This document shows positions 14,120-63,587 of a DNA stretch of 64,000 bases, in pieces (the stretch's first letter is position 1; the number at the start of each line of letters is the position of its first letter). The notes beneath the pieces are model-generated. The model ran no database searches. It saw nothing but the letters and a program-made list of their open reading frames with translations, and was not told the DNA's origin. The DNA is from Lachnoclostridium sp. Marseille-P6806 (GTDB taxonomy: Bacteria > Bacillota > Clostridia > Lachnospirales > Lachnospiraceae). The position numbers were made by a program, and so were the translations under genes. The DNA lies in NCBI RefSeq assembly GCF_900625025.1, contig NZ_LR130574.1:248001-312000 (forward strand), given 5' to 3'.

Positions 14120-14243
14120 ACCACCCTCCTTGCCGAAGCACCATTTGAGAAATACGCCGTTCCGCGCTTTCCCTCTGTAAAATGAGACTTCCGCCGCCGG
14201 CTGCGCCGTGCACATGCGCCTCCCGCAGCATGTTCTTTATCAA

Positions 14244-15224
14244 TCAGGCATCGGAGCCGCAGAGCGCCCCAACGCTCTCCCGCTCGATATATCTGCCTGT
14301 AATGATACTTTTTTCTGCCTGCTCCCCCCGCATCCTGCACAGGAGCAGCTTCATCAGCTCCTCTCCCGCGAGCGCAGACGACACGTCGATGGTCGACAGA
14401 TGCGGGTTGACGAAACGCCCGATTTCAATATTGTCGCAGCCCACGACCGAGACATCGCCGGGAATGCAAAGCCCTCTCTCCCGCAGTGCGTCCATGGCGC
14501 CGATCGCCATCAGATCATTGGTCGTCATGAGCGCCGTGAAGCGCACGCCTCTGCGGAAAAGCTCCGCGACGCCCCGGCGTCCGTCCCGCTCGCTCGTGGT
14601 CTCTCTGCTCTCTCCGTATACGATCTGCTCCTCGCCAAACGGAAGCCCCGCCGCGGCCACGGCCTCTTTGAAGCTCCCGCAGCGCTCATCCGGATTGTCT
14701 TCCCTCAGACCGCTCACATAGGCGATGCGGCGATGCCCCTTTTCCGCAAGCGAGCGCACCGCACTGAAGATCGCGTCCCGGTACCGGATGCCGACATATT
14801 CGCCGGAGGACACGGTGGGAACCTCTCCGGACAGGAGACGCTCGATCTCGGCGTCTCTCTGCGACGCCATGATGATCCCGTCGAGCCTCCGCTGCATCAG
14901 GCGGATGATCCCCTCCTCATCCGTGTCGTCTATGAGAAGAAGAGACGTGAGATACCCCGCTCTCACCGCCGCTCTCTGCGCTCCCATGAGGAGCGACGCG
15001 TAATAGGGGTTCTCGAGATTGTCGACCAGAATCGCAACATGCTGCGTTTTGCTGGTTGCAAGCCCCCTTGCCACGAGATTCGGCCGGTAGCCCAGCGTCC
15101 GCACCGCCTCCTCGACCCGCTCCGTGACCTCGGGAGAAAGGCGCTTTGTCCCGTTCACGACATAGGACACCGTCGCAACGGACACCTTTGCCAGCTCCGC
15201 TACCTCTCTGCGCGTAACAGCCAT
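14244..15224 (-). CDS. LacI-family transcriptional regulator
   Basis: 326 aa. N-terminal helix-turn-helix and hinge: VAELAKVSVATVSYVVNGTKRLSPEVTERVEEAVRTLGY, then a periplasmic-binding-protein-like sensor domain. ATG at 15224 follows GGAGG, and the more upstream in-frame ATGs (15236, 15281) are less likely. It is the first gene of the sugar operon. Its own promoter contains a perfect GGTTAC-N4-GTAACC palindrome, which fits autorepression plus control of the transporter and GH78 genes, relieved by the imported sugar (inference from layout). Confidence 0.92.
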   Translation of the reverse strand: MAVTRREVAELAKVSVATVSYVVNGTKRLSPEVTERVEEAVRTLGYRPNLVARGLATSKTQHVAILVDNLENPYYASLLMGAQRAAVRAGYLTSLLLIDDTDEEGIIRLMQRRLDGIIMASQRDAEIERLLSGEVPTVSSGEYVGIRYRDAIFSAVRSLAEKGHRRIAYVSGLREDNPDERCGSFKEAVAAAGLPFGEEQIVYGESRETTSERDGRRGVAELFRRGVRFTALMTTNDLMAIGAMDALRERGLCIPGDVSVVGCDNIEIGRFVNPHLSTIDVSSALAGEELMKLLLCRMRGEQAEKSIITGRYIERESVGALCGSDA

Positions 15225-15229
15225 ATCAA

Positions 15230-15243
15230 CCTCCATGCCGAAC
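15230..15243 (-). repeat. minimal copy of the RBS-bearing leader repeat
   Basis: The sequence TTCGGCATGGAGG, read on the minus strand, lies directly before lacI and supplies its ribosome binding site. The same string occurs at 29.8, 46.5 and 48.8 kb. Upstream similarity here is weak, so this may be only a chance or fragmentary copy. Confidence 0.4.
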
Positions 15244-15345
15244 CCAAATCGCCGTATGAAATCCCCTGCGCCGATGCGCATGGGTACAAGCCGCTTTGTG
15301 GCTCATGCCGCCCCGCCGTCGCTGCTGATCTCCCTTTTCTTTTTT

Positions 15346-28486: not shown

Positions 28487-29808
28487 CAGCAGTTTCCCCG
28501 TTTCGTCCTCACCGCGAGAACATAATCTACCGGATCCGGAAGCACCGGATCCTCTCCGAGATCCGCAAAGCACAGCTCCGGATAGTCGCTGTGAACCCAG
28601 CTTGTGGAAACCGGAATCTCATAGCCGTTTTCCAGCGCGCGGATGGAGACGATCTCCTCCGGGCGAAGCCCCGGCAGCGGGATCGGACCGATCGTGTTTT
28701 CATAAATATGGAAATAGTAGGTGTCTCCGTTCTGCGTGATCCGGCCGAACTCCGGCTTTTCCACGTCCGCCCTACCGCAGCCGTAAATGCTCTCGTGATT
28801 CTTCTTCATCCAGCGCCCGATCTCCCCGAGAATCGCCATGGATTCCTCCGGGATGTTCCCCCGGGCGTCCGGTCCGACGTTCAGCAGCAGGTTCCCGCCC
28901 TTGGAAACGCACTCGACCAGCTTTTTGATCAGCATCGGCGCCGGCTTGAACAGGCGGTCCGTCCCGCAGAAGCCCCAGTGACCATTCATCGTGACGCAGG
29001 CCTCCCATACCATGGGATTTCCCTCGACGTCGAGAATGCCCTCCGGCGGGATCATCTGCTCGGGGCTCACAAAATCGCCGTGATACGGCGTGGGGCGGCA
29101 CTCCGCGAGCGACCCGCGGCCCTCGCCCGAAACCTCAAGGCGGTTGTCGATGATGACGTCCGGCTGCAGCTCGCGCACCATATTCATGAGCTTGGTCGCG
29201 CCCCATTTTTCCCCGCGCATATCGTCATAGGAAAAATCGAACCAGAGAAGATCGATCCGGCCGTAATTGGTGCAGAGCTCGCGCACCTGATTGTGGAAAT
29301 ATTCCAGATAGCGCTCCCATACGCGGTTCTCGTTGCCGCACTCCGGGCGGTTCCTGTCCGGATGGATCCGGTCGCCGAAATGCGGATAATCCGGATGGTG
29401 CCAGTCAAGCAGCGAATAGTACAGCCCGACCCGCAGCCCCTCCGCGCGGACCGCGTCGACGTACTCGCGGATCAGATCGCGCCCCGCTTTCGTGTTCGTC
29501 GCTTTCCAGTCCGTGTACTGACTGTCGAACAGGCAGAAGCCGTCGTGGTGCTTGGCCGTGAGGACAACGTACTTCATCCCGGCCTCTTTCGCCGCGCGGG
29601 CCCAGCTCTTCGGATCATAGTCGGCCGCGTCAAACTCCTCAAAAAACTTCACATATTCGCTCTCCGGCATCTGCTCGGTGCTGCGCACCCATTCGCCGCG
29701 GGCCGGAATGGAATACAGCCCCCAGTGAATAAACATCCCGAAGCGATCGTGCGTATACCACGTCATACGGCGCTGATAGCTTTCTCTGTCAAACTGATAC
29801 ATATACAT
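28486..29808 (-). CDS. alpha-L-fucosidase, GH29 family
   Basis: 440 aa, no signal peptide, so cytoplasmic. GH29 barrel motifs: YTHDRFGMFIHWGLYSIP, VLTAKHHDGFCLFDS, YYSLLDWHHPDY and LLWFDFSYDD, whose Asp is the expected nucleophile. A C-terminal beta-sandwich follows. It probably removes L-fucose from imported glycans. ATG 29808 is preceded by GGAGG, supplied by the end of a leader repeat; the frame upstream to 29829 runs through that repeat and is rejected. It follows the two permeases of a complex-carbohydrate importer. Confidence 0.94.
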   Translation of the reverse strand: MYMYQFDRESYQRRMTWYTHDRFGMFIHWGLYSIPARGEWVRSTEQMPESEYVKFFEEFDAADYDPKSWARAAKEAGMKYVVLTAKHHDGFCLFDSQYTDWKATNTKAGRDLIREYVDAVRAEGLRVGLYYSLLDWHHPDYPHFGDRIHPDRNRPECGNENRVWERYLEYFHNQVRELCTNYGRIDLLWFDFSYDDMRGEKWGATKLMNMVRELQPDVIIDNRLEVSGEGRGSLAECRPTPYHGDFVSPEQMIPPEGILDVEGNPMVWEACVTMNGHWGFCGTDRLFKPAPMLIKKLVECVSKGGNLLLNVGPDARGNIPEESMAILGEIGRWMKKNHESIYGCGRADVEKPEFGRITQNGDTYYFHIYENTIGPIPLPGLRPEEIVSIRALENGYEIPVSTSWVHSDYPELCFADLGEDPVLPDPVDYVLAVRTKRGNC

Positions 29809-29811
29809 AAA

Positions 29812-29870
29812 TCCTCCATGCCGAAGCACTTTGATGCGAGGCGGCCCTCACGCAGGGCACACGTTTACGA
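29812..29870 (-). repeat. short member of the RBS-bearing leader repeat family
   Basis: Minus-strand sequence GTGCTTCGGCATGGAGGAT ends just before the fucosidase start and holds its RBS. A GCCCT-N5-AGGGC hairpin lies a little upstream in the place where longer copies have their terminal stem. The 5' part of the longer copies is missing. Confidence 0.5.
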
Positions 29871-45063: not shown

Positions 45064-46438
45064 TTTTCATCGCCGTGGTCTGACCCTCGCCGACGCCCTC
45101 CGTACTTTCCGGCTGCACCAGAATCTTGAGCGTAAGGAGCATGAGCTTCAGATCGAGGCCGACTGAATAGTTCTGTATGTATGTGAGATCCAGCTTCAGC
45201 TTGTCATAGGGCGTCGTATTGTATTTGCCGTAGATCTGCGCATAGCCGGCAAGTCCCGCCTTGACGCGGGTCCGAAACGCAAACTCGGGCATCTCCTCCA
45301 TATACTGCCGGATGATCTGCGGGCGCTCCGGCCGGGGCCCGATAAAGCTCATTTCCCCCCGCAGGACATTGAAAAGCTGCGGCAGTTCATCGATCCGGCA
45401 GGTGCGGATAAAGCGTCCCACCGGCGTGATCCTGTCGTCATTCTGCGCGGCAAGGCGTGCCACGCCGTCCTTTTCGGCATCCACGCGCATGCTGCGGAAT
45501 TTGATGATGCGAAATTCTTTCATCCCCTGCGTGCAGCGAGTCTGCCGGTAAAACACCGGCCCGCGGTCATAAAAATAGATCGCGAGCGCCGTGATAAGAA
45601 AAACGGGCGAGCTGAGAATCAGCAGGAGCACCGCGCCGACAAGATCGATCGCCCGCTTCCAGAAGCGCTGCTCAAAGCTCAGCGCATATTCCCGGGTCAT
45701 ATACAGAGGCGTGTCCGACAGATGGATCTGGGCCGAGCCGCGCATCAGCACATCCGGTATCTTGGGCATCACATACATGCGGATGGCATGTCCGTAGCAG
45801 TACTTCATCAGCCGGTTCCGGTCCATGGTCGGGATATCCCACAGAACGACGGTTCCGAATGCCTCTGCCTTTTTTTCGACCGCCTCGATTCCCTCCGAAA
45901 TATTCATGCACGCCGTAATCCGGTATTTATCCGGGCGGCCCGCAAATTTCGCCATGATATCCTCGATCGGCCGCTCCCCGTAGACGAGCAGCATGTCCCG
46001 GGGCGGAAACACCCGCTTGTACACAAAATCACTGATGTTGACCCAGAGCACGGCCAGCACGCACTGCAGCGCCAACAGCTTCCACATGGGTACCTGCGGC
46101 ACAACCCAGTTCCGCATCAGGGAAATCTGGAAATAGGAAATCACATCGACCGCCGCGAGTGAAAAAATCTGCGACAAAATCACGTCAAAGGGCTTGAGAT
46201 AGCCGATCTTATTTCCCTCATAGGTCCGCGTCAGGAAAAGAAGCAGGAAAAAATAGATCAGCAGGATCAGGATATGCCCCTTTACGTAAAATTTCAGTTT
46301 CAGCCGCACCAGCGGATAATAGGAATCAAACCAGATCCACGCATACAGCGCCGTCTGCAGCAGGAGCCCTACAAGGTCCATCTGCAGCGCAAGTATTCTC
46401 CGGAGCGATTCCCGTTTTGACGGCCTGCCTGTATTCAT
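45050..46438 (-). CDS. undecaprenyl-phosphate sugar-phosphate transferase (initiating enzyme)
   Basis: 462 aa. Four to five N-terminal helices, a CoA-binding-like middle domain (about 145-240), then the bacterial sugar transferase domain: KRAIDLVGAVLLLILSS, GPVFYRQTRCTQG, FRIIKFRSMRVDAE, RIDELPQLFNVLRGEMSFIGPRPE. It transfers a hexose-1-phosphate to undecaprenyl phosphate and so starts repeat-unit synthesis. ATG 46438 is 12 bases from GGAGGA in the leader repeat; TTG 46447 is closer (3 bases), so the start is uncertain. The ATG in the repeat opens a 7-codon ORF that ends by ATGA overlap at this start. Confidence 0.92.
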   Translation of the reverse strand: MNTGRPSKRESLRRILALQMDLVGLLLQTALYAWIWFDSYYPLVRLKLKFYVKGHILILLIYFFLLLFLTRTYEGNKIGYLKPFDVILSQIFSLAAVDVISYFQISLMRNWVVPQVPMWKLLALQCVLAVLWVNISDFVYKRVFPPRDMLLVYGERPIEDIMAKFAGRPDKYRITACMNISEGIEAVEKKAEAFGTVVLWDIPTMDRNRLMKYCYGHAIRMYVMPKIPDVLMRGSAQIHLSDTPLYMTREYALSFEQRFWKRAIDLVGAVLLLILSSPVFLITALAIYFYDRGPVFYRQTRCTQGMKEFRIIKFRSMRVDAEKDGVARLAAQNDDRITPVGRFIRTCRIDELPQLFNVLRGEMSFIGPRPERPQIIRQYMEEMPEFAFRTRVKAGLAGYAQIYGKYNTTPYDKLKLDLTYIQNYSVGLDLKLMLLTLKILVQPESTEGVGEGQTTAMKNDET

Positions 46439-46450
46439 GTACCGCAATAA

Positions 46451-46611
46451 TCCTCCATGCCGAAGCGTTCCTCAGCGAGGCACGCGCCGTAAAAGCACCC
46501 TGCGCCGGCGCGCAGGCTGCCGAGCCGCTTCGCGTCTCGTGCCGTCCCACTACGCAACTGCACTTTTCGCTCACGGATCAAATCAGCGCATCAGCGTGAT
46601 TTTTCACACTA
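46451..46611 (-). repeat. leader repeat, copy upstream of the initiating transferase
   Basis: Read on the minus strand it begins AGTGTGAAAAATCACGCTGA, and ends with TTTTACGGCGCGTGCCTCGC, a GCGT-N-CCTC-GCT-GAGG-N-ACGC hairpin, and CGCTTCGGCATGGAGGA. Both ends match the 48.9-kb copy almost exactly, but the centre differs and carries its own CCTGCGC-N4-GCGCAGG hairpin. It fills the gap between two genes and carries the RBS of the second. Confidence 0.75.
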
Positions 46612-46618
46612 TCTCCCC

Positions 46619-47548
46619 TCACAGCGTCTCTTTTACAATGTAGATCGGCCGGTGCTTTACCTCGAGATAGGTTTTTTCAAGATACTGGCCGACCGCTCCG
46701 AGGCACAGCATCTGCACGCCGCTGACCAGCAGAATAATACACACAAGAGACGGCCAGCCGCTGGTCGGATCGCCGAACACCAGCTTGCGGACAATGGTCA
46801 GCAGGATCATCAGCACCGAGGCGGCACAGAACAGCACGCCGGTGACGGAGGCGATCCGTAGGGGCGCCGCGGAAAAGCCCACAATACCGTCGACGGCATA
46901 TTTGAAAAGGCTCCAGAAATTCCACTTTGTTTGCCCTTTCACCCTCTCAATGTTCTCGTACTCCACCCATTTCGTCCGAAAGCCGACCCAGCTGAAAATC
47001 CCCTTGGAAAAGCGGCAGTATTCCGTCATGGAGAGAATCGCATCCACGACCTGACGGCTCATGAGCCGGTAATCGCGGGCGCCGTCGACAATTTCGGTCT
47101 GCGACCAGCGGTTGATGAGCCGGTAGAAGCGGCGCGCAAACCACGAGCGGAGCTTCGGCTCGCCCGTTCTTGTGGTGCGCCGCGTCGCCGCCGTATCATA
47201 GCCCTCCATGAGATAGCCGTAGAGCTCCGGCAAGAGTGACGGCGGATCCTGCAGATCCGCGTCCATGATCGCCACGTAGTCGCCCTTGGAGCTCTGCATT
47301 CCGGCGTACATAGCCGCCTCTTTCCCGAAGTTGCGCGAAAAGGAGATCAGATGGACCGCGCCGTCCTCGGCCGCCAGCTTTTTCACCTCGGCCGCCGTCC
47401 CGTCAAGAGAACCGTCGTCCACATAGATCAGCTCGTAGCCAAGCCCATTCTCCTCAAAAAAGGGACGGTTCCGAATGAACTCGTCATAGAAATAACGTAC
47501 ATTCTCCTCTTCATTATAACAGGGCACCACCGCGCTGATCAGCTTCAT
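46619..47548 (-). CDS. polyprenyl-phosphate glycosyltransferase (GtrB/DPM1-like GT2)
   Basis: 309 aa. N-terminal GT-A domain: KLISAVVPCYNEEENV, IYVDDGSLDGT, ISFSRNFGKEAAMYAG and IMDADLQDPP, the motif of dolichol- or bactoprenol-phosphate sugar synthases. Two C-terminal helices (about 230-300) anchor it. It charges undecaprenyl phosphate with a single sugar, used for side-branch addition outside the membrane. ATG 47548 has GGAGG six bases upstream; the TTG two codons earlier is less likely. Confidence 0.93.
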   Translation of the reverse strand: MKLISAVVPCYNEEENVRYFYDEFIRNRPFFEENGLGYELIYVDDGSLDGTAAEVKKLAAEDGAVHLISFSRNFGKEAAMYAGMQSSKGDYVAIMDADLQDPPSLLPELYGYLMEGYDTAATRRTTRTGEPKLRSWFARRFYRLINRWSQTEIVDGARDYRLMSRQVVDAILSMTEYCRFSKGIFSWVGFRTKWVEYENIERVKGQTKWNFWSLFKYAVDGIVGFSAAPLRIASVTGVLFCAASVLMILLTIVRKLVFGDPTSGWPSLVCIILLVSGVQMLCLGAVGQYLEKTYLEVKHRPIYIVKETL

Positions 47549-47617
47549 AGACAACCTCCACCTCCACGGACAGAGCTTACAGTCAGGTAATTATATCACG
47601 AAAGCCAAGCCCTGCGG

Positions 47618-47678
47618 TTTTTGCACCGGAAGAATCCGCGTCATGCCTGCATGTAAGCGGTTCTTTCGCGTGCAAAAA
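47618..47678. other. long, almost fully paired hairpin
   Basis: TTTTTGCAC (47618-47626) pairs with GTGCAAAAA (47670-47678). Inside, GAAGAA pairs with TTCTTTC (one bulge), CCGC (47636-47639) with GCGG (47657-47660), and CATGC with GCATG around a 2-base loop. The whole 61-base element can fold into one rod. It lies about 70 bases upstream of the GtrB-like gene, next to the tandem repeat. It may be a regulatory RNA element or a palindromic mobile repeat. Confidence 0.65.
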
Positions 47679-47724
47679 GCATGGGGCGCAGCCCCGGAGC
47701 GAGAAAACGCGCCAGCGTTTGCGA

Positions 47725-47865
47725 GCGCCGCAGGGCGGTAATGCGGCGTGGACGGAGCGCCGCAGGGCGGTGATGCGGCGTGGACGGAGCGCCGCAGGGC
47801 GGTAATGCGGCGTGGACGGAGCGCCGCAGGGCGGTAATGCGGCGTGGACGGAGCGCCGCAGGGCG
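47725..47865. repeat. 32-bp tandem repeat, 4.4 copies
   Basis: Unit GCGCCGCAGGGCGGTAATGC plus GGCGTGGACGGA, copies at 47725, 47757, 47789 and 47821, with a partial fifth at 47853. Only one difference was seen (A to G in copy 2). Each unit contains CGCCGCA and TGCGGCG, so each can fold into a hairpin. The array ends 8 bases before the araC-family stop codon (47874). Together with the hairpin at 47618 it occupies the 325-base gap 47549-47873, which has no gene. Confidence 0.9.
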
Positions 47866-47873
47866 AAGCGCGC

Positions 47874-48806
47874 CTACTGCACGCGCTTCCCCGTCTTGTA
47901 CTGCTTCGGCGTGACCCCCTTGAGCCGGCGGAATGTCTTGATCAGATGGCTGCTGTCTGCAAATCCCGTCTCCTGACTGATATAGCTCAGATCACAGTTG
48001 GTAAACAGAAGCAGGTCCTCCGCCTTGCTGATCCGGATATGCTCGATATACTCCTTGCACGAGCGGCCGTACAGGCTGTGAAAGCTGCGGGCAAAATAAG
48101 AGTAGCTCATGCTGCACAGCCCCGCAAGCTGTTCCACCCGCAGATCCTCTCCGGCATGGTTGTCAATATACGCCGTGATATTGTGAATCGAAATTCCCTC
48201 GGTATCCTCGGCGATGGCCACATCCAGATTGATTCCTTTTTCTCTCCAGAGGCGGACGATTTCCGTCATGATCATGGAGATGAGGCTCTGCACCATCAGA
48301 TCATAGCCGTATTCCTTATTTTCCAGCTCCTCCCGTATTCTCGCCATGGTGTCGCCGATCCGCAGACCCGCGATCTGTTTTTTGGGGAAATACATCGGCG
48401 CATGCTGCTCATTGCCCGCCTTGCGCAGGATCACATCCATTTTCGGAACATAGCTGTTTCCGGAATGAAGCCGGCTCACATCAAATTTCAGAATCTCACA
48501 TACCGCCCTCCGCTCTTCATTCTGAAAAAAGCAGTGCACAACCTCCGGACGCACCATGTAGAAATCACCGGCACGGACAAGCTGCGTCACGCCGTCGCTC
48601 TCCACGATCATCCCGCCGCGCAGCATATAAATGATTTCCATATAATAGTGCCAGTGCGGCCGCACCGGCATGGTGATCACGTTAGTGTCAAACAGAAGCG
48701 CTTCCTGCGGCTTGTTCAGCACATCCGACAGCTCTATGAGACTTCCGAGATTTGTCTGCCGTCCGACGTCAGAGCGTCTCCGGTCTCCCCCCTGATTCAC
48801 TGCCAT
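47874..48806 (-). CDS. AraC-family transcriptional regulator with cupin sensor
   Basis: 310 aa. N-terminal cupin-like sugar-sensing domain (about residues 25-165: ITMPVRPHWHYYMEIIYMLRG), a linker region, and two C-terminal helix-turn-helix motifs (LAGLCSMSYSYFARSF and DLSYISQETGFADSSHLIKTFRRLKG). ATG 48806 follows GGAGGAG; the in-frame ATG four codons earlier is part of the leader repeat. It precedes the polysaccharide genes on the same strand and may regulate them, or a sugar operon elsewhere (inference). Confidence 0.93.
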   Translation of the reverse strand: MAVNQGGDRRRSDVGRQTNLGSLIELSDVLNKPQEALLFDTNVITMPVRPHWHYYMEIIYMLRGGMIVESDGVTQLVRAGDFYMVRPEVVHCFFQNEERRAVCEILKFDVSRLHSGNSYVPKMDVILRKAGNEQHAPMYFPKKQIAGLRIGDTMARIREELENKEYGYDLMVQSLISMIMTEIVRLWREKGINLDVAIAEDTEGISIHNITAYIDNHAGEDLRVEQLAGLCSMSYSYFARSFHSLYGRSCKEYIEHIRISKAEDLLLFTNCDLSYISQETGFADSSHLIKTFRRLKGVTPKQYKTGKRVQ

Positions 48807-48811
48807 ATCCT

Positions 48812-48954
48812 CCTCCATGCCGAAGCGTCCCCCAGCGAGGCACGCGCTGTAAAATACGCGCAGGCGGTTTTACAGCTGCGATCAGGGGCACTTTGGGCTT
48901 CGGCACAAATTGCCGTGCGCAAAAATCATCGCATCAGCGTGATTTTTCACACTA
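48812..48954 (-). repeat. leader repeat, most complete copy, upstream of the AraC gene
   Basis: On the minus strand: AGTGTGAAAAATCACGCTGA start, a GCTGTAAAA-N13-TTTTACAGC stem (48876-48868 with 48854-48846; 9 pairs), a terminal GCGT-N-CCTC-GCT-GGGG-N-ACGC hairpin and the CGCTTCGGCATGGAGGA end. Compared with the 46.5-kb copy, one pair in the terminal stem changes from U-A to U-G, so pairing is kept. It lies between the DUF3810 gene and the AraC gene and provides the RBS of the latter. Confidence 0.75.
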
Positions 48955-49016
48955 CTCCTCCACGTTGAAAGCTCCCCGGAGGGGCTGTCGCCGCGTTCCT
49001 TTTCCGCTCTGCCGCC

Positions 49017-50372
49017 TCACTGCGCCGCCTGCTTTTCCTGCCACCATTCCAGAAGATGGACAACCACCAGAGCGTAGCTGCCCCGTCCTTCTGCTATACC
49101 GTTTGCTTTCATCGAAGCGTCCGACAGTGTCTCATTGGCTGACTGCAATGTCTCCGTGTCGATGACGGCGCTCTCCTCGACCGCCGCCCGGACATCCTCC
49201 CGCAGAAACTCCTGATCCCTGCGCACCTGCTTCGAGATTGCCGGCTGCTCCGCGTAGCGCGCCCGGTTTCTCCCGATCGACTCGTAGTAGGCGTTGTCCA
49301 CATAATTCAGGATGCCCAGCCACCCGCTGTACCGGAACGCCGGGTCCCCGCTTTCCAAGCAGGCAAAAAAGCCGATCATATTGCAGTCGTCCTCCCTCAT
49401 ATACCCCTTAAGGTGCGCCAGCTCATGGCATAAGGTAAACGGAACGTGCATGACCGTCATATCGAGGTTGTAATTCGCCTCCATCGAAAACGGAAAATAA
49501 TAGCCCTGCATTTCGGCCTGACTCATAAGGTGCGAGTACGCCATGCCCTTGGGCCGGGGATAAAATCCCTGAAGCTGCGGTATCTTCCGGTTCTCCGCCA
49601 GACGTCGAAGACAGCAGATCGCCTCCGCGGAGGCGTCCTCCCCGAGCAGAACCTCTCCGGCCGCATCGCGCGGCACAATCTCTGCAAGTCGGTTCGACTG
49701 CTCCGCAATATAATTCCGGAGCTGTCGGAGCGATTCCGCCGTGTCTGCGCCGTCCTCCGTCTCCGCTTCTGCCGCGGCCGGATCGCCGAGCGAAAACCCG
49801 GATGCATGATATACGATGAAGCAGTTCAGCGTCATAATCAGAACGACGACCGACACGAGCCACAATGATATTCTGCAAAAAACGGCGGCGGGCCGCCACA
49901 ATCCGAGGCGAGACTTCCCGGGCGAAATTTTGCCGGCCGGGAACTTCTCAGCCGACGACACCTCAGCCGATGACCTCCCGACAGGCGACGGACCAGAATG
50001 GCCGTCCCGCCCCGTCCGCCGACGGCGGAACAACCCCGACAGGGCGCGGATTCCTCCCGCGGCGGCAAGCGCCGCTCCTGCCGCACACCAGAGCGCTCCC
50101 GCCGTGAGCATCACCTCTCCCACAGAAAACGGAGCAAGGCCGGTCAGCCGTCCGAGGCTCCCGACCCAAAGCGGAAAAATCCGGCACTGATACCAGTCGC
50201 AGAACGGAACGGAGGACCACGCCGCAAGATTCAGCAGCCCTGACAGCGCAAGGAGAAGCACCGGGAGCCTGCGTATTCCCGCTGTCCTCACGCCGCCGGA
50301 GACAGCGCGCGTTCTCCGCCTCCGCAGCGCTTTCGGTCTGCGCTTTTTTCTCCCGCTCGTTCCTGTGGTCAT
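49017..50372 (-). CDS. DUF3810 membrane protein with HExxH metallopeptidase motif
   Basis: 451 aa. A basic N-terminus (many Arg/Lys to about residue 30), three helices within about 35-190 with a low-complexity Ser/Pro/Gly loop between the second and third, then an extracytoplasmic domain typical of DUF3810 with TLCHELAHLKGYMREDDCN (HExxH at about residue 314) and YPRPKG. The zinc-binding HELAH suggests peptidase activity, not demonstrated for the family. The start at 50372 fits a promoter-like TATAGAAT just upstream near 50415; the frame start at 50414 is not excluded. It is the last gene after nitrilase, nudC and ydcF. Confidence 0.82.
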   Translation of the reverse strand: MTTGTSGRKKRRPKALRRRRTRAVSGGVRTAGIRRLPVLLLALSGLLNLAAWSSVPFCDWYQCRIFPLWVGSLGRLTGLAPFSVGEVMLTAGALWCAAGAALAAAGGIRALSGLFRRRRTGRDGHSGPSPVGRSSAEVSSAEKFPAGKISPGKSRLGLWRPAAVFCRISLWLVSVVVLIMTLNCFIVYHASGFSLGDPAAAEAETEDGADTAESLRQLRNYIAEQSNRLAEIVPRDAAGEVLLGEDASAEAICCLRRLAENRKIPQLQGFYPRPKGMAYSHLMSQAEMQGYYFPFSMEANYNLDMTVMHVPFTLCHELAHLKGYMREDDCNMIGFFACLESGDPAFRYSGWLGILNYVDNAYYESIGRNRARYAEQPAISKQVRRDQEFLREDVRAAVEESAVIDTETLQSANETLSDASMKANGIAEGRGSYALVVVHLLEWWQEKQAAQ

Positions 50373-61601: not shown

Positions 61602-62966
61602 TTACATCTCTCTCGTGAGGTTCCTCACCCAGAGATATTTCCGGAAATGCAGCATCACCCAGGGGATCTTGCCCACCTCATCGAGGCAGGTACAGGCATA
61701 GACGACAAGCACGGGAAGATGCAGGACAAACGCGCCGGCAAAGGCCGCCGGGAGCGCGAAGCACCACATCGAAACCGCGAGCGAATACACATCGAACTTC
61801 GTGTCTCCGCCGCCGTCAAAGATGCCGTTGATCACCACGGTATTCACGCAGCGTCCGATCATGTAGACAGAGGTGATGACGAGCATTCCTACAAGGTAGC
61901 TCCGCGCTTTCTCCGTGAGTATCATGAAATGCGCGATGAGCGGCGTCGCGGCAAGAATCAGCCCCATCGTGAGGAAGCCGATCAGGAAAGAGAGGATGCA
62001 GAGCCGCTTGCCGTAGAGCTTCGCCTTTTCGAGCTTTCCCGCGCCCAGCTCATTGCCGAGAATGATCGCGCCGGCGCTGCTGATGCCGTTGCACAGGCAG
62101 CACATGAGATCACGGACGACCGCCGCCACAGAGTTGGCCGCCGCGGCGTCCGCCCCCATATGCCCCATGATCGCCGTATAGGAGGTGAAGCCCACGCCCC
62201 AGAGGAGCGACGCCCCGAGAATCGGAAAGGATATTTTGCGGAAATCCATATTCAGAAGCCGGTTTCGCCGCAGCAGACCGCGCAAACGGGGATGCAGAAA
62301 ACCGCTCTGATAAGAGGAAACCACGCACCAGATGAGCTGGATCACCCGGGAAATGAGCGTCGCCAGCGCCGCGCCGTCTGCCCCCATGGACGGCAGCCCG
62401 AGCAGCCCGTAGATAAAGATCGCATTGAGCACCACATTGAGCACGACCGCACCGGAGGAAATCCACGCACTGCGGCTTACATGCTCGGAGATGCGCATCA
62501 TGGTGAGGTAGCACTCCGAGAAACCGGTGAGCAGATACGACCACCCGGCGATCCGCAGATACCCCGCGCCGATGCGTGCAAGCTCCGCATCATTCGTAAA
62601 AAACAGCATCAGAAATTCCGGAAAAAACACGCAGGCAACAAAAAAGGCCGTGTCGATCAGCGTGATCATCCGGAGGATTCTGCAGAATATATCGTCCAGC
62701 GTCTTAAGATCCTGTTTCCCCCAGTACTGCGCTCCGAGTATCGACGCCGCACCCGTCTCCGCAAAGAGAAACATATTCATGACAAACTGCACCTGCGTCG
62801 CCAGAGAGACGGCCGCCATGGAGTTCTGATCGAGACGCCCCAGCATGACCGCGTCCGCAGCCGCCACCGAGGCCAGCATCAGACTCTGCAGAGCAATGGG
62901 AAGCGTGAGCGTGATCAGCTTCCGGTTAAAATTGTGATCGGTAAAAATACCCTCCCGCATCTGCAT
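61602..62966 (-). CDS. MATE-family efflux transporter
   Basis: 454 aa, twelve helices. Opening KLITLTLPIALQSLMLASVAAADAVMLGRLDQ and second-half repeat ISFPILGASLLWGVGFTSYTAIMG are typical. Related only distantly to the MATE at 53.2 kb. ATG 62966 follows GGAGG, supplied by the end of a leader repeat; the 34-codon upstream frame runs through that repeat. Exports an unknown compound with Na+ or H+. It follows aroK on the same strand. Confidence 0.93.
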   Translation of the reverse strand: MQMREGIFTDHNFNRKLITLTLPIALQSLMLASVAAADAVMLGRLDQNSMAAVSLATQVQFVMNMFLFAETGAASILGAQYWGKQDLKTLDDIFCRILRMITLIDTAFFVACVFFPEFLMLFFTNDAELARIGAGYLRIAGWSYLLTGFSECYLTMMRISEHVSRSAWISSGAVVLNVVLNAIFIYGLLGLPSMGADGAALATLISRVIQLIWCVVSSYQSGFLHPRLRGLLRRNRLLNMDFRKISFPILGASLLWGVGFTSYTAIMGHMGADAAAANSVAAVVRDLMCCLCNGISSAGAIILGNELGAGKLEKAKLYGKRLCILSFLIGFLTMGLILAATPLIAHFMILTEKARSYLVGMLVITSVYMIGRCVNTVVINGIFDGGGDTKFDVYSLAVSMWCFALPAAFAGAFVLHLPVLVVYACTCLDEVGKIPWVMLHFRKYLWVRNLTREM

Positions 62967-62970
62967 CTGA

Positions 62971-63100
62971 CCCTCCATACCGCAGCGCTTTACGCAAAAC
63001 ACGAGCTCCCAAAGCCATACAAGCGATTTTAGGGCTGTGATCAACGGTGGTTCCGGCTTCAGAACCAATCACTGCACAAAATCCCTGCCTCAGCGTCGGA
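62971..63100 (-). repeat. diverged leader repeat upstream of the MATE gene
   Basis: Homologous over about 120 bases to the 48.9-kb copy: shared blocks on the plus strand include GCTG(C/T)GATCA, GGCTTC-G-AC-AAT and GC-TCAGCG, and the end is GCGGTATGGAGGGTCAG in place of CGGCATGGAGGA. It overlaps the last bases of aroK and provides the RBS of the MATE gene. Confidence 0.55.
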
Positions 63101-63587
63101 TCACAGCAAGGAGCTTCTGCAGCGTCTCCTCCTGTGAACAACCCTTTTCATCAATCGTAATATCACTGTAACGCTCATACAGCGCCGTGCGCTCCTCATA
63201 GAGTCCGCGCTGCGTCTGTCCGGGCAGGAGAACAACGCCTCTCCTCCGGAAAGAGGAGCCCGTTCTTTTCCGCATCTCCTCAAACGAGATCCGGAGATAG
63301 ATGCAGCGCCCGTTCTCTTTCAGACGGCGCATGGCCCGTTCTCCGTATACTGCGCTCCCGCCGGTCGAGATAACGGTTTTTTCCGCCTGTATGCCGCTCA
63401 GAATCTCGTCCTCCACACGGATAAATTCCTCCGGGCCGTCCTCGGCGATGATCTCCGAAAGAAGCTTTCCGGTGGTTCTCTGAATCAGCAGATCCGTGTC
63501 AAGAAAGCGGTATCCCAGATATTTTGCCAGCATGACGCCGATGGTGCTCTTGCCGCTGCCGGGCAGACCGATCAGAACATAATTCAA
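63090..63587 (-). CDS. aroK: shikimate kinase-like protein, TTG start
   Basis: 165 aa. P-loop LIGLPGSGKSTIG, FLDTDLLIQ (shikimate-binding Asp region) and VISTGGSAVYGERAM (canonical GGG is GGS here), then a lid with FRRRG and a basic C-terminus. It phosphorylates shikimate in aromatic synthesis. The start is TTG 63587, which overlaps the TRAP permease stop (TTGA) and has GGAGG eight bases upstream; the longer frame lies inside the TRAP gene. Coupling to a TRAP transporter rather than to other aro genes is notable. Confidence 0.88.
   Translation of the reverse strand: MNYVLIGLPGSGKSTIGVMLAKYLGYRFLDTDLLIQRTTGKLLSEIIAEDGPEEFIRVEDEILSGIQAEKTVISTGGSAVYGERAMRRLKENGRCIYLRISFEEMRKRTGSSFRRRGVVLLPGQTQRGLYEERTALYERYSDITIDEKGCSQEETLQKLLAVIRR

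What the first reader, a model, noticed from the sequence alone, without database searches (positions are those of the whole stretch)
46451..48954. Dispersed structured leader repeat that carries the ribosome binding site of the next gene
Two copies (46451-46611 and 48812-48954) share near-identical ends, with an AGTGTGAAAAATCACGCTGA start and a CGCTTCGGCATGGAGGA end, while their centres differ but keep internal hairpins. A diverged copy lies at 62971-63100, a short one at 29812-29870, and a minimal one at 15230-15243. All face the same way, sit directly 5' of a gene and supply its Shine-Dalgarno sequence. The terminal stem keeps pairing through a U-A to U-G change. Targets are unrelated genes (AraC regulator, initiating transferase, MATE, fucosidase), so it behaves like a portable 5' leader. 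It may be a translational control RNA or a mobile element that inserts at starts.
Basis: partly seen in the sequence, partly recalled or inferred. Interest (0 to 1): 0.72.

Follow-up and report, generated by a model that had tools for sequence, protein, structure and literature searches.

The report
Structured repeat inserted before start codons
A folded, roughly 140-letter piece of DNA has been inserted many times in certain gut bacteria, typically in the narrow gap between a gene's ribosome landing site and its start codon, and it brings a replacement landing site with it, so that even housekeeping genes can carry it.

Summary
The copies belong to a dispersed family of about 140 nt with four hairpins: 74 matches at E<=1e-7 in this genome, matches in 45 of 117 related genomes, own included, and in many named Lachnospiraceae assemblies. 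No Rfam family matches. Copies usually lie on the coding strand, most often 5-6 nt before a start codon, and end in a Shine-Dalgarno sequence (SD). Stems covary strongly. A previously unremarked pairing, hairpin-2 loop with the strand before the SD, covaries between genomes and competes with hairpin 4. Orthologous empty sites at two loci show the element between the original SD, kept at its 5' flank, and the start codon. Targets include pyrE, guaB, glmM and lepA. So it is an inserting, SD-regenerating portable leader. What moves it is unknown: Y1 transposases and reverse transcriptases are each missing from several high-copy genomes. Folding calculations gave no clear support for an SD-hiding switch; regulation is untested. 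Best filed as a new variant of small interspersed mobile repeats.

The parts
48812..48952 (-). complete element copy (4 hairpins + SD), leader of the AraC-type regulator 47877-48806
   Evidence: R1 143.1 bits, E 2.5e-35; R2 86.3 bits
48957..48961 (-). GGAGG in the 5' flank just before the element (SD1, probably the original SD of the target gene)
   Evidence: sequence; 5'-flank SD enrichment; empty sites at two other copies
48915..48952 (-). hairpin 1 (GTGTGAAAAATCACGCTGATGCGATGATTTTTGCGCAC)
   Evidence: A2 columns 1-38, 96.7% of cells paired
48887..48914 (-). hairpin 2; its loop 48897-48905 (TGCCGAAGC) pairs with 48818-48826
   Evidence: A2 columns 39-66; long-range pairing columns 48-56 with 128-136
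48843..48880 (-). hairpin 3
   Evidence: A2 columns 73-111, 97.4% paired, 5 pairs changed on both sides
48818..48842 (-). hairpin 4; its 3' strand 48818-48826 (GCTTCGGCA) is shared with the long-range pairing
48812..48816 (-). GGAGG carried by the element (SD2), 5 nt before ATG at 48806
   Evidence: sequence, ORF
46452..46609 (-). composite copy: hairpin-1 5' part + module B + hairpin 3/4 part + SD, no hairpin 2; leader of the sugar transferase (TTG 46447 or ATG 46438)
   Evidence: R1 42.9 bits; module B match at G000:C1:294500-294580 = window 46500-46580; ORFs
46613..46618 (-). GGGGAG, SD-like 5' flank of the composite copy
   Evidence: sequence
62972..63107 (-). diverged copy before the MatE gene (61605-62966)
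   Evidence: R1 36.9 bits, E 5.9e-8; R2 21.4 bits
29813..29906 (-). decayed copy, hairpin 4 + SD recognisable by eye, before the fucosidase (28489-29808)
   Evidence: R1 9.6 bits only, E 0.66; exact 15-nt tail
15230..15244 (-). tail only, before the LacI regulator (14247-15224)
   Evidence: 1 mismatch
   Evidence: 1 mismatch, sequence

Best explanation
This is a family of small (about 130-145 nt, longer with module B) non-coding elements of Lachnospiraceae and one neighbouring family that spread by insertion. SHOWN: most copies lie in sense orientation just before a start codon and end in an SD of their own (SD2); most complete copies also have an SD in the 5' flank (SD1); at two loci orthologs in related species lack the element, and at the better-aligned one (4 of 4 junctions) the ancestral SD is the one now lying 5' of the element; the sequence is under strong selection for pairing, including a long-range pairing of the hairpin-2 loop with the strand before SD2 that competes with hairpin 4; copies tend to cluster by genome. 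INFERRED: the SD-start gap is the preferred landing site, either because an unidentified enzyme recognises it or because only these insertions survive; regenerating the SD keeps the target gene translated, which is how housekeeping genes tolerate it; the folded RNA becomes a portable 5' leader of the mRNA. The moving machinery is unknown. The retained SD1 may still load ribosomes at the element's first GUG.
For: Copy number: 74 matches at E<=1e-7 and 125 at E<=0.1 in the own genome, 150 of 1938 first-look candidates scored. Position: start codon of an ORF within -2..+13 nt of the 3' end in 56 of 73 own copies and 57 of 73 copies from named assemblies, against 16 of 73 and 6 of 73 on the opposite strand and 556 of 2920 and 494 of 2960 random positions. 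SD1: anti-SD pairing energy <= -5 in 26 of 34 (own, non-tandem, complete 5' end) and 51 of 63 (named assemblies), against 8 and 7, and 14 and 8, in two upstream control windows. Empty sites: of 7 genomes searched with the G007 locus L045, 4 span the junction and all 4 lack the element, reading ..CAGGAGG..ATGAAG (no model hit there); the own pyrE copy is absent from 26 of 27 same-genus orthologs with a visible pyrE start, and the 27th carries a different, related hairpin element in the same gap. Near-identical copies: 11 fetched from G125 with unrelated flanks, SD-like 5' flank in all 11 by eye, two of them remnants of another copy's tail. Covariation: 154 double-change cells against 43.7 shuffled for hairpins 2+3; long-range pairing 32 against 11.2 and duplex energy -15.5 against -11.5 kcal/mol permuted, 0 of 2000, in 55 copies from named assemblies. 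Amplification by lineage: nearest neighbour in the same genome for 33 of 33 own copies and 20 of 47 others, permuted mean 4.6, largest 11. Housekeeping targets.
Against: No enzyme found. No general target-site duplication: same-copy 5'/3' similarity equals permuted in the own genome (435 of 1000 permutations as high); the mixed-species set shows an excess (0 of 1000) that species differences could cause. Empty sites come from different species (78-88% identity at the G007 locus), so movement itself was not caught. Not every pyrE ortholog has a clear SD at the corresponding point (by eye). Related repeats that break the rule exist: L068, L074, L075, L076, L079 and L085 have an atypical 3' end and none has an ORF of 60 codons starting within 40 nt (0 of 6). 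17 of 73 own copies failed the ORF test: copies in which the model stopped at module B, short ORFs, and real exceptions such as C4:44787 (tail lost) and the metK copy C4:30910, where the only good start is the ATG inside the tail itself, so SD2 cannot serve it. The long-range pairing shows no covariation within the own genome, where it hardly varies (-12.37 against -12.22, 423 of 2000).
Confidence: 0.74

Rival explanations
1. A true cis-regulatory RNA: the strand before SD2 switches between hairpin 4 and the hairpin-2 loop in response to a signal and sets translation of a scattered regulon; copies spread because selection favours putting genes under this control.
For: Two mutually exclusive pairings of the same strand both covary, with matching changes in all three segments in examples such as L141 (GAGCAA / GCAAC / GTTGC against GAGCGA / GCGAC / GTCGC, by eye). 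SD1 is as strong in the lower-scoring as in the higher-scoring half of 34 own copies (-7.19 against -7.02), as if still used. Masking the long-range strands raises predicted SD2 exposure somewhat in the named-assembly set (0.328 to 0.404).
Against: SD2 is not clearly more or less exposed than in shuffled elements (0.388 against 0.360; 0.328 against 0.377), and masking changes nothing in the own set (0.388 to 0.393). For hairpin 4 two of five covariation measures do not exceed shuffles. Targets are unrelated genes. The window copy at 46452-46609 lacks hairpin 2, so it cannot switch. Patchy presence among species of one genus.
Confidence: 0.25
2. A leader-peptide system: ribosomes load at SD1 and start at the GUG at the element's third base (GUG AAA AAU), and their passage through the hairpins controls the downstream gene.
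For: SD1 is retained at start-codon distance; a start codon at +3 is present in 32 of 42 complete own copies (the 72 of 72 in named assemblies follows from the search pattern).
Against: The frame is open to the element's end in only 20 of 42 own and 34 of 72 other copies, and ends after 6-7 codons in 7 of those 72; lengths vary by single bases, so no reading frame is conserved.
Confidence: 0.1
3. A REP/PATE-type element moved by a Y1 (HUH) transposase of the IS200/IS605 or RAYT kind.
For: Hairpin-rich, strand-specific insertion without clear target-site duplication, high copy number. PF01797 is present in 5 other element-bearing genomes (G058, G015, G008, G125, G031).
Against: PF01797 is absent from the own genome and from 6 further high-copy genomes G337, G330, G207, G358, G324, G340, and present in 6 of the 12 genomes chosen as element-free.
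Confidence: 0.05
4. Retro-insertion: an RNA copy is reverse transcribed into place (5'-truncated copies that keep the 3' end would fit).
For: Many own copies keep the 3' end but lack hairpin 1. The own genome has one reverse transcriptase, and 6 further element-bearing genomes have at least one.
Against: No reverse transcriptase (PF00078) in 5 element-bearing genomes, G330, G207, G324, G008 and G031; 3'-truncated copies would be removed by selection anyway because they lose the SD.
Confidence: 0.04
5. An old leader present in the ancestor and lost in relatives.
For: At least one position is shared by close species (before a gene I read as pyrG, in G007 and G024).
Against: Losses would have to restore a clean SD-to-start distance independently in 4 of 4 orthologs of one locus and remove the element in 26 of 27 of the other; own copies resemble each other more than copies elsewhere.
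Confidence: 0.03

Closest known systems
BOX elements of Streptococcus pneumoniae (PMC3049150, passages read)
   Same: Small interspersed repeat, modular (boxA-boxB(n)-boxC; here a four-hairpin core with optional module B), tightly folded if transcribed, affects expression of nearby genes, judged parasitic by its authors.
   Different: The passages report over-representation between convergent genes, not before start codons, and the one mention of Shine-Dalgarno sequences is that BOX-encoded ORFs lack good ones; BOX termini resemble ISSpn2. No sequence comparison was made here.
MITEs in prokaryotes (review PMC10969869, passages read)
   Same: Short, non-coding, dispersed, structured when transcribed, presumably moved in trans.
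   Different: No terminal inverted repeats between the two ends, no general target-site duplication, not more AT-rich than its surroundings (element GC 0.566 against locus GC 0.575; 0.479 against 0.471), no parent IS found (only two enzyme families searched).
REP/BIME/REPIN elements with RAYT transposases (PMC2817692 and PMC3116915: search listing and starts of abstracts only)
   Same: High copy number, palindromes, amplification by lineage.
   Different: Longer, four hairpins, strongly biased place and orientation at start codons, no Y1 transposase in several high-copy hosts.
Riboswitches and other structured 5' leaders (recalled)
   Same: Covarying stems, competing pairings next to the SD, in the 5' leader.
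   Different: Unrelated targets, dozens of copies in a genome, insertion history, no Rfam match.

Membership tests
MITE | terminal inverted repeats | tested here: not met
   By eye: the 5' end GTGTGAAAAATCA and the 3' end CGGCATGGAGGATTA are not inverted repeats of each other (sequences); the inverted repeat is local to hairpin 1
MITE | target-site duplication | tested here: inconclusive
   None above permutation in 31 own copies; excess in 57 copies of the mixed-species set
MITE | AT-rich sequence | tested here: not met
   Element and locus GC about equal: 0.566/0.575 own, 0.479/0.471 named assemblies
MITE | dispersed insertions with empty sites in relatives | tested here: met
   Two loci:
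MITE | parent insertion sequence with matching ends in the same host | not tested
   Only two enzyme families were searched; no search for an IS with matching ends
REP/RAYT or PATE | Y1 (HUH) transposase in the host | tested here: not met
   0 matches in G000 and 6 further high-copy genomes; present in 5 other element-bearing genomes
Group II intron or its remnant | intron RNA domains and reverse transcriptase | tested here: not met
   No Rfam match; RT absent in five element-bearing genomes, present in seven, own included
Known Rfam RNA family | score above the gathering threshold | tested here: not met
   Window at gathering threshold; window 46300-49200 and 7 loci with permissive E-values: none
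Riboswitch | ligand-dependent change of expression | not testable with these tools
   Covariation present; no binding or expression data
BOX element | boxA/boxB/boxC sequences | not tested
   No BOX sequence was compared; only passages of the paper were read

The most novel reading that the evidence does not exclude
A class of mobile elements whose landing site is the translation-initiation gap itself: it enters between Shine-Dalgarno sequence and start codon, regenerates the SD at its far end so that any gene, essential ones included, becomes a safe harbour, and is moved by machinery that is neither a Y1 transposase nor a reverse transcriptase. Its pseudoknotted RNA may be the substrate or guide of that machinery, or a portable translation switch.
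Probability: 0.4. Interest if true: 0.88.

Novelty: new variant of a known kind. Interest (0 to 1): 0.74.

Why it matters
If right, dozens of genes in some gut bacteria are translated through a transplanted leader, and annotation and expression prediction for Lachnospiraceae should take it into account. It shows a strategy that I know of (from recall and the searches listed) in no other small bacterial repeat: sitting in the SD-start gap and replacing the SD. It gives a natural experiment, the same leader on dozens of genes with orthologs that lack it, to measure what a structured 5' leader does to translation. It also poses a sharp question: which enzyme, if any, recognises an SD?

Tried and rejected
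Rfam with permissive thresholds: miRNA-like chance matches and a SAM-I-IV match far below gathering. Protein-coding reading: no conserved frame. Target-site duplication as the source of the 3' SD: not supported in the own genome, where the 3' SD region looks more uniform than the 5' flank (by eye). Y1 transposase and reverse transcriptase as the required enzyme: rejected for several hosts, though each is present in others. SD occlusion switch and SD insulation: no clear support in folding calculations. G-U against A-C census to tell RNA from DNA selection: mixed (all helices of A5: 55 GU, 39 AC; long-range pairing 19 against 5), and hairpin 1 of A5 cannot be used because those sequences were picked by an exact hairpin-1 pattern. 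One class-level hit outside families f1 and f8 (G423) has only a hairpin-1-like palindrome by eye and was set aside as chance. Literature: no description found in searches of the held library, which lacks most subscription journals and most preprints; only titles and starts of abstracts were looked at, apart from passages of two papers. Rows dropped: 1 of 74 own copies (no locus held); 16 of 90 matches (cut by a contig end, weak or secondary); length and 5'-end filters reduced the copies used to the numbers stated there; one search used 80 of the 117 stretches, the other 37 were read only by eye. Of 25 relatives' copies printed, 4 were skipped because the locus was cut and 1 (L066) was mis-sliced.
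Full report
OBSERVATION. A covariance model of 19 own-genome copies (R1) gives 143, 43 and 37 bits for the three longer copies and only 9.6 bits (E 0.66) for the short one; the tails at 29813 and 15230 stand on their 15-nt end alone. I add a sixth, tail-only copy at 14125-14140. The window copies are a small sample: the own genome has 125 matches at E<=0.1, 74 of them at E<=1e-7, with 150 of 1938 candidates scored.

ANATOMY. A complete copy reads SD1 - hairpin 1 - hairpin 2 - hairpin 3 - hairpin 4 - SD2 - start codon. On the own-genome alignment A2, 94.6% of cells pair and 12 pairs change on both sides, against 5.4 in shuffles. On 38 copies from other genomes (A5), hairpins 2 and 3 have 93.9% of cells paired and 154 double-change cells, against 43.7 shuffled and at most 37 in slid controls. 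Shuffles do not keep relatedness, so the slid controls are the fairer comparison. The loop of hairpin 2 pairs with the strand directly before SD2: 91.4% paired, 32 double-change cells against 11.2 shuffled and at most 8 slid, though the number of pairs with a double change (5) is reached by 59 of 500 shuffles. In the own genome alone these partners hardly vary and show no covariation. Hairpin 4 uses the same strand (74.8% paired, 26 double-change cells against 9.6 shuffled and at most 10 slid; two of its five measures do not exceed shuffles), so the two exclude each other. Measured without an alignment, loop and strand of one copy fit better than those of different copies (-15.5 against -11.5 kcal/mol, 0 of 2000 permutations, 55 copies from named assemblies; own genome -12.37 against -12.22, 423 of 2000), and for hairpin 4 this holds in both sets (-8.6 against -6.8 and -9.16 against -7.89, 0 of 2000 each). 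In other species hairpin 1 has quite different letters and still pairs (by eye).

MODULES. An 85-nt module B sits in hairpin 1 or hairpin 3 of some copies. Of 41 matches in the genome, 30 were fetched; 23 have hairpin 1 within 170 nt upstream, 24 the element's tail within 190 nt downstream, and 29 of 30 have at least one. The window copy at 46452-46609 is hairpin-1 part + B + hairpin-3/4 part, as recombination between two module-B copies would give (inference).

PLACE. In the own genome 56 of 73 copies have an ORF start codon within -2..+13 nt of the 3' end on the same strand, most often 5 or 6 nt; of 73 copies from named assemblies 57 do. The opposite strand gives 16 and 6 of 73, random positions 556 of 2920 and 494 of 2960. 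The misses are copies whose model match stopped at module B, short ORFs, copies followed by another copy, and real exceptions: C4:44787 has lost its tail, and at C4:30910 the reading frame I take for metK begins at the ATG inside the tail, so SD2 cannot serve it. The targets are ordinary genes. Pfam domains fit aspartate carbamoyltransferase, ClpB, PyrE, YlxR, LepA, HisH, GlmM, IMP dehydrogenase, SAICAR synthetase and S-adenosylmethionine synthetase (10 proteins chosen by me; gene names from my reading of sequence and domain), and in the window a sugar transferase, AraC, MatE, fucosidase and LacI proteins.

INSERTION. The 5' flank just before hairpin 1 also carries an SD: anti-SD energy <= -5 in 26 of 34 own and 51 of 63 other non-tandem copies with complete 5' ends, against 8 and 7, and 14 and 8, in control windows upstream. 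Orthologs explain it. I searched 7 genomes with a G007 copy (locus L045); in 4 (G024, G060, G003, G069) the match spans the junction, at 78-88% identity on the two sides. All four read ..TCTCAGGAGG..ATGAAG; G007 reads ..TATCAGGAGGAA, then the element from GAGTGAAAAATCAC to ATGGAGG, then TAAAAGTGAA and ATGAAA. At the own pyrE copy, 27 of 29 fetched same-genus loci gave a pyrE start. 26 have no element in that gap by eye, and the models find none there (L308 has a hit elsewhere); one (L284, G047) has a weak match to a different hairpin element in the very same gap. Some of these orthologs keep a CAGGGAGG like the own SD1 (for example L302, L310), others show no clear SD (by eye). So the element came in between the original SD and the start codon in the one well-aligned case, and the second case fits. 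In G125, eleven near-identical copies have unrelated flanks, all with an SD-like 5' flank by eye, two of these being remnants of another copy's tail. No general target-site duplication was found.

DISTRIBUTION. 45 of 117 genomes (own included) match at E<=0.001, unevenly within one genus. An order-wide sample gave 22 of 294, all in families f1 and f8; a class-wide sample gave 4 of 392, one of them (family f50) only a chance-like palindrome. These large searches use strict filters, so absences are soft. R1 matched 79 of the 80 stretches searched. Copies cluster by genome: 33 of 33 own copies and 20 of 47 others have their nearest neighbour in the same genome, permuted mean 4.6, largest 11 of 200 permutations.

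MECHANISM. Shown: insertion into the SD-start gap (two loci), a replacement SD, strongly biased orientation, selection on pairing, clustering by genome. Inferred: that the gap is a target and not merely the only survivable place; that SD2 now drives translation; that the leader is transcribed. Unknown: the mover. Y1 transposases are missing from the own genome and six other high-copy genomes but present in five other element-bearing ones; reverse transcriptases are missing from G330, G207, G324, G008 and G031 but present in seven element-bearing genomes, own included. Neither is therefore required. A regulatory role is possible because two pairings of one strand are conserved, but nested folding shows no clear difference in SD2 exposure against shuffled elements (0.388 against 0.360 and 0.328 against 0.377); masking the long-range strands leaves the own set unchanged (0.388 to 0.393) and raises the other from 0.328 to 0.404. 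Such calculations cannot model the pseudoknot. SD1 is as strong in the lower-scoring half of own copies as in the upper half, a hint that it is still used.

KNOWN THINGS. No Rfam family fits. The library searches found BOX/RUP/SPRITE repeats, MITEs and REPs as nearest kinds (passages of PMC3049150 read, of PMC10969869). In those passages no SD-gap preference is described; BOX and its kin are over-represented between convergent genes. The MITE passages name AT-richness, terminal inverted repeats and target duplication, which are not met or not shown here. I therefore call it a new variant of the small interspersed mobile repeat, working like a portable leader, and not a member of the MITE, REP, BOX or riboswitch families.

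LIMITS. The named set was picked by an exact hairpin-1 pattern. Some related repeats break the rule: L068, L074, L075, L076, L079 and L085 have an atypical 3' end and no ORF of 60 codons starting within 40 nt. No expression or movement was observed.

Noticed in passing
window 47723-47882: A 32-bp tandem repeat (GAGCGCCGCAGGGCGGTAATGCGGCGTGGACG, about 4-5 units) lies between the glycosyltransferase and the AraC gene.
   Followed up: no
window 47608-47688: Long imperfect hairpin (31-nt arms) that drew a miRNA match below gathering in Rfam; perhaps a terminator.
   Followed up: no
L284:2326-2435 (before pyrE, G047) and L308:2387-2511 (G005): A sister family with a similar layout but other letters (in L308 GTTTGAAA...TTTCAAAC hairpin, end TCAGCGAGG before ATG) also sits before start codons; in G047 it occupies the same pyrE gap as the own-genome element.
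   Followed up: partly
L068, L074, L075, L076, L079, L085: Related units with an atypical 3' end and no ORF of 60 codons starting within 40 nt; L074 runs straight into another unit.
   Followed up: partly
L115 around 123-155: A lone hairpin 1 flanked by SD-like sequences facing inward from both strands, as if two opposed copies had recombined.
   Followed up: no
L067 (G021): The hairpin-2 loop appears inverted (GTGCTCAGGCAC instead of a GTGCCTGAGCAC-type loop), which would break the long-range pairing.
   Followed up: no
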